From: Faecalibacterium prausnitzii
GTDB lineage: Bacteria > Bacillota > Clostridia > Oscillospirales > Ruminococcaceae
Assembly (NCBI RefSeq): GCF_003287405.1
Contig: NZ_PRLD01000001.1
Span: 310,001 to 374,000, forward strand
Length of the DNA: 64,000 bases
Direction of reading: 5' to 3'
Shown: positions 7,724 through 58,211 of the stretch, one piece after another
Layout: every line of letters starts with the position of its first letter
Numbering within the stretch: position 1 is the first letter of the stretch
The notes under the pieces: model-generated
What the model was told of the DNA's origin: nothing
Seen by the model: only the letters and a program-made list of their open reading frames with translations
Databases searched by the model: none
Program-made: the position numbers and the translations under genes

Positions 7724-8718
7724 TCTGCGCCTACCTTGCCTTTACGGATACCGGCCTTGCACTGGCAAAGCGCCTTGCCGCTGCCCTGCCCGGCAGCGTT
7801 GCCCGGTGCGGGCAGGATGGCACTTCTCTTGCAAAATGGACAGGCGTGCAGTTTGTGCAGTCGGATGCGCTGATATTTGTAGGCGCTGCGGGCATTGCGG
7901 TGCGGGCTATCGCGCCCCACTGCAAGAGCAAGACCACCGACCCCGCTGTGGTGGTGGTGGATGAATGCGGGCGGTTTGCCGTGCCCATTTTGTCCGGGCA
8001 TCTGGGCGGCGCAAATGATCTGGCGCGGATCATTGCTGCTGTATGCGGTGCTGTGCCGGTGATCACCACCGCTACCGATGCCCATGGCATTTTTGCAGTG
8101 GACGAGTGGGCAAAGCACCAAAACTGCATGGTGCTGGAACCGGAGCGTATCAAGCTGGTCAGCGGCAAGTTACTGGCAGGACAGCCGGCCTATTACTGGG
8201 CAGATATCACTGTAACGGGCACTGCGCCCGCCGGGTTATTCCCGGCAGAAGCCCCGGAAAAAGCCGACCTTGCACTCACCCTCTGCCCCACCGGACAGGC
8301 ACTGCATCTTGTGCCGCGCATCGGGGTGCTGGGCATCGGCTGCAAGCGGGGCACAAGCGCTGACACGCTGGAGGCCGCTTTTGCCGCCTTCTGCGCCCGG
8401 CACGGCCTTGCTGCGCAGACAGTTACCGCCGCCGCAAGCATCGACCTGAAGCAGAACGAGCCGGGCTTGCTGTCCTTTTGTCAGGCACACGGCTGGCCGG
8501 TGCGGTTTTACACTGCCGCACAGCTGCGCAGCGCGCCCGGGCAGTTCACCCCCTCCCCTTTTGTACAGAGCGTGACCGGGGTGGACAATGTCTGTGAGCG
8601 GGCAGCGGTGCTGGACGCAGGCGGTCGCCTGTTTTACCCCAAATTTGCCTGTAGCGGCGTAACCTTTGCGCTGGCGTGCAGGCCCTTTGCCCCGGACTGG
8701 AGGTGGCAGAATGGTTGA
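7720..8718 (+). CDS. cbiG: Cobalt-precorrin-5A hydrolase
   Basis: The 332-residue product shows the CbiG N-terminal domain (DALIFVGAAGIAVRAIAPH, then PILSGHLGGANDLA) and the C-terminal domain (LGIGCKRGTSADTLEAAF). It opens the delta-lactone of cobalt-precorrin-5A and releases acetaldehyde, the ring-contraction step of the anaerobic route. The start overlaps the cbiF stop by four bases. Length is normal for the family. Confidence 0.93.
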   Translation: MICAYLAFTDTGLALAKRLAAALPGSVARCGQDGTSLAKWTGVQFVQSDALIFVGAAGIAVRAIAPHCKSKTTDPAVVVVDECGRFAVPILSGHLGGANDLARIIAAVCGAVPVITTATDAHGIFAVDEWAKHQNCMVLEPERIKLVSGKLLAGQPAYYWADITVTGTAPAGLFPAEAPEKADLALTLCPTGQALHLVPRIGVLGIGCKRGTSADTLEAAFAAFCARHGLAAQTVTAAASIDLKQNEPGLLSFCQAHGWPVRFYTAAQLRSAPGQFTPSPFVQSVTGVDNVCERAAVLDAGGRLFYPKFACSGVTFALACRPFAPDWRWQNG

Positions 8719-57204: not shown

Positions 57205-57233
57205 TTGTCATTTTTGTGCAGATATGCTACAAT
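57205..57233 (+). promoter_or_regulatory. Promoter of the double-glycine-leader protein genes
   Basis: TTGTCA at 57205-57210 and TACAAT at 57228-57233 are 17 bp apart. The upstream 57057-57204 is AT-rich and holds an inverted repeat ACTGTGATA (57094-57102) / TATCACAGT (57131-57139). A GAACT..CCCC / GGGG.AGTTC hairpin (57247-57267) is in the leader. Confidence 0.72.
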
Positions 57234-57291
57234 TCAGTTACTAGATGAACTGCCCCTTGGGGAGTTCTGTGTGCGAAAGGAGTTTTCCATC

Positions 57292-57759
57292 ATGGATCAT
57301 ACATATCAGCGCCCTCTGCAGCTGCCTGCCGGCTACGCTGTGCTCTCTGCCGAGGAGATGACCTACACCGAGGGCGGTGCTCTTTCCATCAATATCACCC
57401 CGCAGCAGGTCATGGCCTTTGGCATGACCGTTACTGTAAATCTGCTGGGCATGATGGGCCGTTATGCATTCCAAGGCGCTGTCTCCGGTATGCAGAATGC
57501 CTTGAACGATGGTTTGGACGTTGGTGATGCCGTGGGGCACTACTGGGGTCAGCTGAACACCTGGAGCAAGGTAGCTTCTATCGGTCTGGCCGGTCTGGGC
57601 GGCTACTACGCCTATATTCAGGCCCGCAGCATCTATCTCTCCGTCAAGAATCTGGTAACTGCCATCAAGGAGTCCATTGACGAGTATAAGGCCAACAAGA
57701 ACGCTGCACAGGAGACCGAGCAGCAGAACTGCCTGCCTACGCTGGTAGCCCTGTGCTAA
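57292..57759 (+). CDS. Small protein with double-glycine leader, MAM-like
   Basis: The 155-residue product has a leader ending in Gly28-Gly29 (LPAGYAVLSAEEMTYTEGG). Cleavage there would leave 126 residues with two hydrophobic stretches (about 44-60 and 106-120) and a charged C-terminal tail ending in Cys residues. From memory, the F. prausnitzii anti-inflammatory protein MAM has a very similar leader (MPANYSV..NEMTYVNGG). Such leaders are normally cut by a C39-peptidase ABC exporter; none is encoded here. AAAGGAG precedes ATG 57292. A second such gene follows 34 bp on. Confidence 0.7.
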   Translation: MDHTYQRPLQLPAGYAVLSAEEMTYTEGGALSINITPQQVMAFGMTVTVNLLGMMGRYAFQGAVSGMQNALNDGLDVGDAVGHYWGQLNTWSKVASIGLAGLGGYYAYIQARSIYLSVKNLVTAIKESIDEYKANKNAAQETEQQNCLPTLVALC

Positions 57760-57793
57760 GTTTTTATCGTACCTGAAAGGAGTGTTCCTCTTT

Positions 57794-58159
57794 ATGAAAA
57801 AGCTTCAGCTGCCTGCTTCCTATGCAGCGCTTTCTCCAGAAGAGCAGCGCACTGCCTTTGGCGGAAGCGAATTCGGCGATGCTGTCGGCAGCTTTTTTGA
57901 TAACCTGCACTTCGGTGATTTCTTCTGGGAGGGCGGGCTGCTCTCGTTCTCCTTCACCTTTGTGCCCATGCTGTTTTTCCGCATGATCAAGGTAGGCGTA
58001 CAGACCGGCATCAAGCTGTACCAGCAGTTCGCCCGTTTGCTTGGTGTGACCAGCGAAGCCGCCACCACTACCGTCCAGTATCTGGACAGTATCCAACAGC
58101 AGAGAAAGGATCGTCCCGTTACAAACTCTCTCCCCCAGCCCTTTTCTCTGCAGCAGTAA
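57794..58159 (+). CDS. Second small protein with double-glycine leader
   Basis: The 121-residue product has the leader LQLPASYAALSPEEQRTAFGG, homologous to that of the preceding gene (LQLPAxYAxLSxEE...GG), with cleavage expected after Gly24. The mature 97 residues begin SEFGDAVGSFF, include a hydrophobic stretch (GGLLSFSFTFVPMLFF), an amphipathic helix region, and a polar tail. The two mature parts do not look alike, which suggests a two-component pair such as class IIb bacteriocin partners. That is inference. ATG 57794 follows AAAGGAG by 11 bp. Confidence 0.68.
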   Translation: MKKLQLPASYAALSPEEQRTAFGGSEFGDAVGSFFDNLHFGDFFWEGGLLSFSFTFVPMLFFRMIKVGVQTGIKLYQQFARLLGVTSEAATTTVQYLDSIQQQRKDRPVTNSLPQPFSLQQ

Positions 58160-58164
58160 GCCAT

Positions 58165-58211
58165 AAAAAAGCCGTGCATCCCGGAGCTTTCCGGCCATGC
58201 ACGGCTTTTTT
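58165..58211. terminator. Bidirectional terminator between the leader-protein genes and galK
   Basis: AAAAAAGCCGTGCAT and its complement flank a 17-base loop, with A- and T-runs on the two sides. Confidence 0.9.

What the first reader, a model, noticed from the sequence alone, without database searches (positions are those of the whole stretch)
57292..58159. Tandem pair of MAM-like proteins with homologous double-glycine leaders
Two adjacent genes share a leader pattern LQLPAxYAxLSxEE...GG, while their predicted mature parts (126 and 97 residues) are unrelated and both hydrophobic/amphipathic. The leader of the first closely resembles, from memory, that of the F. prausnitzii anti-inflammatory protein MAM. 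A tandem pair suggests a two-component secreted system exported by a C39-peptidase ABC transporter not encoded nearby. This is the strongest candidate here for an undescribed system.
Basis: partly seen in the sequence, partly recalled or inferred. Interest (0 to 1): 0.8.

Follow-up and report, generated by a model that had tools for sequence, protein, structure and literature searches.

The report
Paired MAM-leader export proteins of Faecalibacterium
Two neighbouring genes encode small proteins carrying an export tag very like that of a known anti-inflammatory protein of the gut bacterium Faecalibacterium, which suggests that this protein is one of a larger set exported by a single transporter.

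Summary
Window 57292-57759 (155 aa) and 57794-58159 (121 aa) are a conserved tandem pair with double-glycine leaders. A leader matrix built without them ranks these leaders first and second of 78,817 20-mers in the window. Adjacent orthologues occur in 26 of 31 genomes of the genus; all 52 proteins keep the leader spacing and GG. The genes are under purifying selection but diverge faster than three neighbours compared. The genome's only detected C39-peptidase ABC transporter (PCAT) is on another contig and carries the published MAM-PCAT signature. The leader profile matches 3-8 times in 27 of 31 genomes, before at least five cargo families: gene 1, gene 2, MAM, tandem arrays, a short protein. 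Gene 1's mature part is remotely similar to MAM; gene 2's is not. In four genomes outside the genus with this leader, it lies 1.5-6.1 kb from a C39 domain. Most likely the pair are core substrates of the MAM exporter that join the cell envelope; cleavage, localisation and partnership are inferred. A two-component bacteriocin is unlikely. Six library searches found no description of the pair.

The parts
57205..57233 (+). possible sigma-70-type promoter, TTGTCA - 17 nt - TACAAT with TG before the second hexamer
   Evidence: 10 of 12 consensus matches; 2 promoter-like sites found in the region against 0.9 expected, so weak on its own
57276..57282 (+). ribosome-binding-site-like AAAGGAG upstream of gene 1
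   Evidence: read directly from the sequence
57292..57759 (+). gene 1: precursor of 155 aa, MAM-type leader plus a 126-aa cargo remotely similar to MAM
57292..57378 (+). gene 1 leader (29 aa), ends in GG
57379..57756 (+). gene 1 predicted mature protein (126 aa, starts ALSINITP)
   Evidence: cleavage site inferred
57776..57782 (+). ribosome-binding-site-like AAAGGAG upstream of gene 2
   Evidence: read directly from the sequence; favours ATG at 57794 over the GTG at 57782
57794..58159 (+). gene 2: precursor of 121 aa, same leader type plus a 97-aa cargo of a family found only in Faecalibacterium in these searches
57794..57865 (+). gene 2 leader (24 aa), ends in GG
57866..58156 (+). gene 2 predicted mature protein (97 aa, starts SEFGDAVG), with a conserved core around SFTFVPxLLF
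   Evidence: cleavage site inferred
58165..58211 (+). strong intrinsic terminator closing the two-gene unit
   Evidence: -29.9 kcal/mol, z -8.1, 0 of 200 shuffles fold as well; not among the sites listed by the simple scan

Best explanation
The pair is a two-gene operon encoding two precursors that are substrates of the Faecalibacterium MAM exporter. The single PCAT, encoded elsewhere in the genome with an HlyD-type adaptor, recognises the shared leader (Pro at -18, Tyr at -15, hydrophobic at -12, Glu at -8, Gly-Gly at -2/-1), cuts after the double glycine and exports the cargo. The mature proteins, probably helical, then join the cell envelope with MAM and the other leader-bearing cargoes. 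Gene 1 is probably a remote MAM paralogue in its mature part. Gene 2 is an unrelated small protein, encoded just downstream in every genome where the pair was found. Shown here: the leader, its genus-wide conservation, the gene arrangement, one PCAT with intact motifs in the own genome, and leader-PCAT linkage in four genomes outside the genus. Inferred: cleavage, export, envelope location, and any partnership of the two products.
For: Held-out leader test. Adjacent orthologues in 26 of 31 genus genomes; GG and spacing in 52 of 52 proteins. One C39 protein detected in the own genome and in each of 26 of 31 genus genomes, 25 of them in an open frame of 776-846 aa; Cys, His and Asp motifs aligned with PCAT1; the published PCAT motif GIE[TL][VI]K is present as GIETVK. 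Four genus genomes without such a PCAT have 0, 0, 0 and 1 (E 0.525) leader match. Outside the genus, leaders lie 1.5-6.1 kb from a C39 domain in 4 of 4 genomes that have them. Gene 1 cargo against MAM: hhalign probability 54.8, E 1.2e-4; matching controls at most 0.8 (20 column shuffles), 1.6 (reversed) and 1.1 (18 PCAT windows). dN/dS 0.15-0.21. MAM itself is reported as the most abundant envelope protein of F. duncaniae, and its leader was missing from the LiCl extract and seen once elsewhere (PMC12184118).
Against: The pair and the PCAT are unlinked. Co-absence of PCAT and leaders in four genomes is not independent: all four branch at the base of the genus tree. G025 (77% complete) has the pair but no detected PCAT; in G028 (one contig, 97% complete) the PCAT is split over two reading frames near residue 207 although pair and leaders are present, which is either an error or a broken exporter; G024 (79% complete) has PCAT and a MAM but no pair. 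Gene 2's leader scores far lower than the others (9.2 bits here, 2.6 in the lowest orthologue) and lacks the MTY block. Gene 1's leader has low dN but also low dS, so its dN/dS is not lower than that of the mature part in 2 of 3 comparisons. The MAM similarity of gene 1 is moderate, and other controls reached 58 and 26 (families against their own reversal) and 11.7 (a shuffled MAM - short family pair). No protein data were examined, and both models are of low confidence.
Confidence: 0.7

Rival explanations
1. A two-component bacteriocin-like pair secreted against competitors through the shared PCAT.
For: Two adjacent genes with double-glycine leaders and a PCAT in the genome; fast divergence between species while neighbouring genes stay conserved.
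Against: The pair is present in 26 of 31 genus genomes, beside malQ in 12 of 14 named loci, rather than in a variable cluster. No gene for immunity lies between malQ, the pair and the terminator. The cargoes are 126 and 97 aa, much longer than class IIb peptides (about 30-50 residues, recalled). No Pfam or NCBIfam bacteriocin family matches.
Confidence: 0.12
2. Gene 1 alone is a MAM-type structural envelope protein, and gene 2 is its dedicated anchor or assembly factor (a more specific form of the best explanation, so the odds overlap).
For: Gene 2 lies directly downstream in all 26 genomes, has a very conserved core SFTFVPxLLF and a shorter cargo, while gene 1 aligns with MAM.
Against: Nothing links the two products physically; gene 2's highest hydropathy window (1.57) stays just below a usual membrane-helix threshold.
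Confidence: 0.3
3. The leaders are relics; the products stay in the cytoplasm or inner membrane and no longer use the PCAT.
For: Pair and PCAT are unlinked; gene 2's leader departs from MAM's; G028 keeps the pair although its PCAT frame is interrupted; gene 1's leader is not under lower dN/dS than its mature part in 2 of 3 comparisons.
Against: GG and its spacing are kept in 52 of 52 proteins, and leader dN is below mature dN in all six comparisons (0.000-0.057 against 0.108-0.143).
Confidence: 0.1

Closest known systems
Microbial anti-inflammatory molecule (MAM) of Faecalibacterium (PMC8836110, PMC12184118)
   Same: Leader spacing (Pro to GG 18 residues), Glu at -8, GG end; gene 1 cargo remotely similar; the same genome carries a MAM on contig C29 and a PCAT on C11.
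   Different: Neither leader fits the published motif MMMPANx(8,11)VxGG; gene 1 has a longer N-terminal extension before the leader core; gene 2 cargo is unrelated; the locus lies between malQ and a galactokinase-type gene, not beside the PCAT.
PCAT1 (solved structures 4ry2, 6v9z; substrate CtA, Clostridium thermocellum, per PMC12184118)
   Same: Best-scoring solved relative of the own-genome PCAT, with catalytic motifs aligned; double-glycine leader logic.
   Different: The Faecalibacterium PCAT has an insertion between the His and Asp motifs of the C39 domain and would serve several unlinked substrates (inferred).
Class IIb two-peptide bacteriocins (recalled)
   Same: Two adjacent double-glycine precursors.
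   Different: Larger cargoes, no immunity gene or transporter in the operon, locus common to most genomes of the genus.

Membership tests
MAM family | Leader motif MMMPANx(8,11)VxGG (motif from PMC12184118) | tested here: not met
   Neither P0001 nor P0002 contains MMMPAN; the own-genome protein at L012:7115-7564 fits it.
MAM family | Homology of the mature protein to MAM | tested here: inconclusive
   Gene 1: hhalign probability 54.8, E 1.2e-4, above its own controls. Gene 2: probability 0.1, no similarity, so not met for gene 2.
MAM family | Gene beside a PCAT (certain strains in PMC8836110; most species in PMC12184118) | tested here: not met
   Pair on contig C18, PCAT on C11; the own-genome MAM is on a third contig, C29.
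MAM family | Anti-inflammatory activity and envelope abundance | not testable with these tools
   No assay or proteome data could be searched.
PCAT (C39) double-glycine substrates | Leader with hydrophobic -12, Glu -8, hydrophobic -7 and -4, Gly-Gly -2/-1 (consensus quoted in PMC12184118) | tested here: met
   Gene 1: L-12, E-8, M-7, T-4, GG. Gene 2: L-12, E-8, Q-7, A-4, GG, so the -7 position is not met. GG in 52 of 52 orthologues.
PCAT (C39) double-glycine substrates | A PCAT with intact motifs in the genome | tested here: met
   One PCAT of 794 aa, Cys, His and Asp motifs aligned with PCAT1, transmembrane and ATPase domains present.
PCAT (C39) double-glycine substrates | Cleavage after Gly-Gly and export | not testable with these tools
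   Needs biochemistry or mass spectrometry.
Class IIb two-peptide bacteriocin | Immunity gene and dedicated transporter in the operon (recalled) | tested here: not met
   Flanks are malQ (Glyco_hydro_77) and a galactokinase-type gene; no other likely gene before the terminator.
Class IIb two-peptide bacteriocin | Short cationic mature peptides (recalled) | tested here: not met
   126 and 97 aa; K+R 7 and D+E 8 in each.

The most novel reading that the evidence does not exclude
The Faecalibacterium PCAT is the hub of a genus-specific surface-assembly pathway. One leader and one exporter deliver at least five small cargo families (gene 1, gene 2, MAM, tandem arrays, a short protein) that build a composite envelope layer. 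MAM is only one component of it, and the window pair is a widely kept core of the layer with a job of its own. If so, some host effects credited to MAM may belong to the whole set.
Probability: 0.35. Interest if true: 0.78.

Novelty: new variant of a known kind. Interest (0 to 1): 0.6.

Why it matters
Faecalibacterium is a major human gut commensal, and MAM is a key effector and major envelope protein of it (PMC12184118, abstract and sections 18 and 22). If the same exporter also delivers this pair and at least two further families, MAM studies have looked at one of about seven candidate substrates per genome (median 7 leader matches in 27 genomes). The published leader motif does not fit the pair. 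It makes an open question directly testable: what the PCAT exports, and what the unusual F. duncaniae envelope is made of. F. duncaniae itself appears to carry the pair (genome G003, whose MAM contains the peptide printed in PMC12184118), so existing mass spectrometry data could settle much of it.

Tried and rejected
Rejected: class IIb bacteriocin filing (no immunity gene, wrong size, locus common to most of the genus). Rejected: a transporter dedicated to the pair (one C39 protein detected in the genome). Rejected as independent proof: the PCAT/leader co-absence, because the four genomes all branch at the base of the genus.

Led nowhere: Pfam and NCBIfam on both proteins (one hit each for gene 1, far below the curated cut-offs, none for gene 2). 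Solved-structure profile searches (four antibody chains at E 0.56-0.98 for gene 1, none for gene 2). AlphaFold models at pLDDT 56.8 and 58.6, so no fold search was run. Literature searches beyond the two MAM papers (two searches returned only those two). A gene-2 profile match in one other genus (G036, E 2.6e-4, 42 profile positions) is probably chance. Upstream regions of own-genome leader genes were printed; no shared promoter element was looked for by computation.

Dropped rows and limits: the cargo clustering used only loci fetched so far, merged identical mature parts, and holds 24 of 26 gene-1 orthologues, because two (G004, G010) lie in very long open frames that the script did not scan; 100 of its 150 sequences lie outside the two window families. 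The gene-1 and MAM profiles rest on 24 and 23 sequences. Twenty-five PCATs served as decoys; G028's was not picked up. In the tree 28 of 31 genomes were used; G009 and G024 were fragmentary and G025 had no match. The first tree was wrong, because antisense frames were picked up, and was replaced. The script stopped on an error after the leader test; the rest was rerun. One search found relatives through a single peptide pattern, so it is not exhaustive. Match lists are capped.

Full report
Anatomy. Both genes lie exactly where reported. Gene 1 (57292-57759) and gene 2 (57794-58159) are on the + strand, 34 nt apart, each behind an AAAGGAG. One promoter-like site lies upstream on the same strand (57205-57233), and a very strong terminator lies downstream (58165-58211, -29.9 kcal/mol, z -8.1). 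They sit between malQ and a convergent galactokinase-type gene. The anatomy is that of a two-gene transcription unit; transcription itself was not tested.

Is it more than chance? Yes. A leader matrix trained on 65 distinct leaders of other families, without gene 1 or gene 2, ranks the two leaders first (54.3 bits) and second (9.2 bits) among 78,817 20-mers in the window; the third scores 0.7. The same held-out matrix gives 38.1-59.6 for 24 gene-1 and 2.6-38.3 for 26 gene-2 leaders, so gene 2's leader is the looser fit. In the genus set of 31 genomes, gene 1 matches in 27 (the G024 match is only a MAM, so 26 orthologues) and gene 2 in 26. In all 26 the two lie on the same contig, next to each other, in the same order and strand (coordinates; spacings printed for 24 of them, 23-111 nt). 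The 18-residue Pro-to-GG stretch is kept in 52 of 52 proteins. Rates against three close relatives give dN/dS of 0.15-0.21 for the two genes; against two of them malQ and galK give 0.07-0.08 and a neighbouring binding protein 0.02. The genes are real and constrained but evolve faster than these neighbours. Leader dN is below mature dN in all six comparisons (0.000-0.057 against 0.108-0.143). For gene 1, however, leader dS is also low, and leader dN/dS exceeds the mature value in 2 of 3 comparisons (0.31 and 0.29 against 0.19 and 0.15); for gene 2 it is lower in all three (0.05-0.08 against 0.21-0.23).

The exporter. The own genome (70 contigs, 99.6% complete) has one detected C39-peptidase transporter, on contig C11. 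It is 794 aa with C39, transmembrane and ATPase domains, and is followed by a 151-aa protein, an HlyD-type adaptor and a Big_2-domain protein. HlyD-type and Ig-domain neighbours are described near mam and its PCAT in F. prausnitzii A2-165 (PMC8836110, passages). The best-scoring solved relatives are PCAT1 entries, and the Cys, His and Asp motifs align. It carries GIETVK, a form of the motif that PMC12184118 uses to recognise the MAM PCAT.

One leader, several cargoes. The leader profile finds 3-8 matches (median 7) in 27 of 31 genus genomes (E up to 1; that profile includes leaders of the pair). Three of the other four have none and one has a single match at E 0.525. Those four also lack a full PCAT (G020 has a weak 293-aa C39 frame). 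A C39 match of the PCAT type is present in 26 genomes, in an open frame of 776-846 aa in 25. In the 26th, G028, the gene is split over two reading frames near residue 207. G025 (77% complete) has pair and leaders but no detected PCAT; G024 (79% complete) has PCAT and leaders but no pair. The tree of a housekeeping gene (28 genomes) puts the four leaderless genomes at the base, so this co-absence counts as about one event. A better test lies outside the genus. In a sample of 297 family genomes, 8 have the leader at E up to 1e-4, four of them outside Faecalibacterium. In these four, leader genes lie 1.5-6.1 kb from a C39 domain on the same contig in 4 of 4 (G086, G209, G273, G321; G209 has a second C39 protein elsewhere). 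Of 15 other family genomes outside the genus searched in the same call, 5 have a C39 protein, so PCATs without this leader also exist.

Cargo families. Clustering 150 distinct leader-bearing sequences by mature part (BLAST E up to 1e-4) gives five families in Faecalibacterium: tandem arrays (57), gene 2 (26), gene 1 (24 of the 26), MAM (23) and a short family of 49-54 aa (10). The remaining ten are two related proteins of G273 and eight singletons, two of these in Faecalibacterium (L145, L179). Profile comparison of mature parts gives gene 1 against MAM a probability of 54.8 (E 1.2e-4, 64 columns). Controls for this pair: column shuffles at most 0.8 (20), one side reversed at most 1.6, PCAT windows at most 1.1 (18). 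The other nine family pairs stay below 10 (highest 9.5, gene 1 with the short family). Other controls did score higher: gene 2 against its own reversal 58, the array family against its own reversal 26, and one shuffled MAM - short family comparison 11.7. I therefore read gene 1 as a probable, not certain, remote MAM paralogue, and gene 2 as a separate family.

Distribution. Named relatives of gene 2 were found only in Faecalibacterium (14 of 14 loci, one peptide pattern), and a family-wide profile search (396 genomes) found it in six genomes of the genus plus one doubtful match elsewhere. malQ lies upstream in 12 of 14 named loci and in 19 of 25 short loci of the genus set (in some of the rest the contig or flank is short). 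The galactokinase-type gene is the same in five of the 14 named loci; six others have a 42-43% identical gene in the other orientation. The F. gallinarum locus shares none of the eight flanking genes tested, so the pair lies elsewhere there, and the short Candidatus F. intestinavium contig shows none either.

Mechanism. Shown: leader, GG, genus-wide pairing, gene arrangement, one PCAT with intact motifs in the own genome, leader-PCAT linkage in four other genomes. Inferred: cutting after GG, export through the trans-encoded PCAT, and incorporation in the envelope. The last step rests on MAM, reported as the most abundant envelope protein of F. duncaniae; in the LiCl extract its first 21 residues were the only part missing, and a leader-bearing peptide was seen in one of four replicates of another extraction (PMC12184118: abstract, passages and sections 18 and 22). 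Two structure models are mostly helical but of low confidence and prove little.

Known or new. [quoted passage not shown] the pair does not fit it. PMC8836110 (passages) describes strains with two mam genes. Six searches of the paper library listed no paper that by title or abstract start describes this pair or a wider set of PCAT substrates in Faecalibacterium; most subscription papers and preprints are not held, and supplementary files could not be read.

Verdict. A genuine, conserved and, as far as searched, undescribed pair of MAM-leader proteins. It extends a described export system rather than being a new kind of system.

Noticed in passing
L010:7580-7909 and 7983-8417 (- strand; own genome contig C6): A second tandem pair with the same leader; its family (57 proteins in the sample) often lies in arrays of 2-3 genes. 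The one member tested has no Pfam or NCBIfam match.
   Followed up: partly
L011:7113-7469 (- strand; own genome contig C38): Short leader-bearing protein, mature part about 52 aa, of the smallest cargo family (10 members), just downstream of a gene whose product begins like a secreted protein.
   Followed up: partly
L012:7115-7564 (own genome MAM, contig C29) and L009:7161-9545 (PCAT, contig C11): MAM and PCAT lie on different contigs here and hundreds of kb apart in the one-contig genomes G017, G029 and G030, although print describes them as adjacent in most species; in G003 they are about 2 kb apart.
   Followed up: partly
L009, PCAT residues about 99-134: Insertion rich in Lys and Glu between the His and Asp motifs of the C39 domain; the Pfam match is split into two stretches in all 26 PCATs of the genus set.
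   Followed up: no
G028:C1:1947568-1948062 (L074): The PCAT of this one-contig genome is split over two reading frames near residue 207, while the pair and other leaders are present.
   Followed up: partly
gene 1 C-terminus, orthologues: 19 of 24 gene-1 proteins end in Ala-Ala (0 of 26 gene-2, 2 of 23 MAM), while four from the window's own clade end TLVALC. It resembles a ClpXP-type degron (recalled) that could remove unexported precursor.
   Followed up: no
L145 (99 aa, genome G009) and L179 (146 aa, genome G008): Two leader-bearing Faecalibacterium proteins whose cargoes fall in none of the five families.
   Followed up: no
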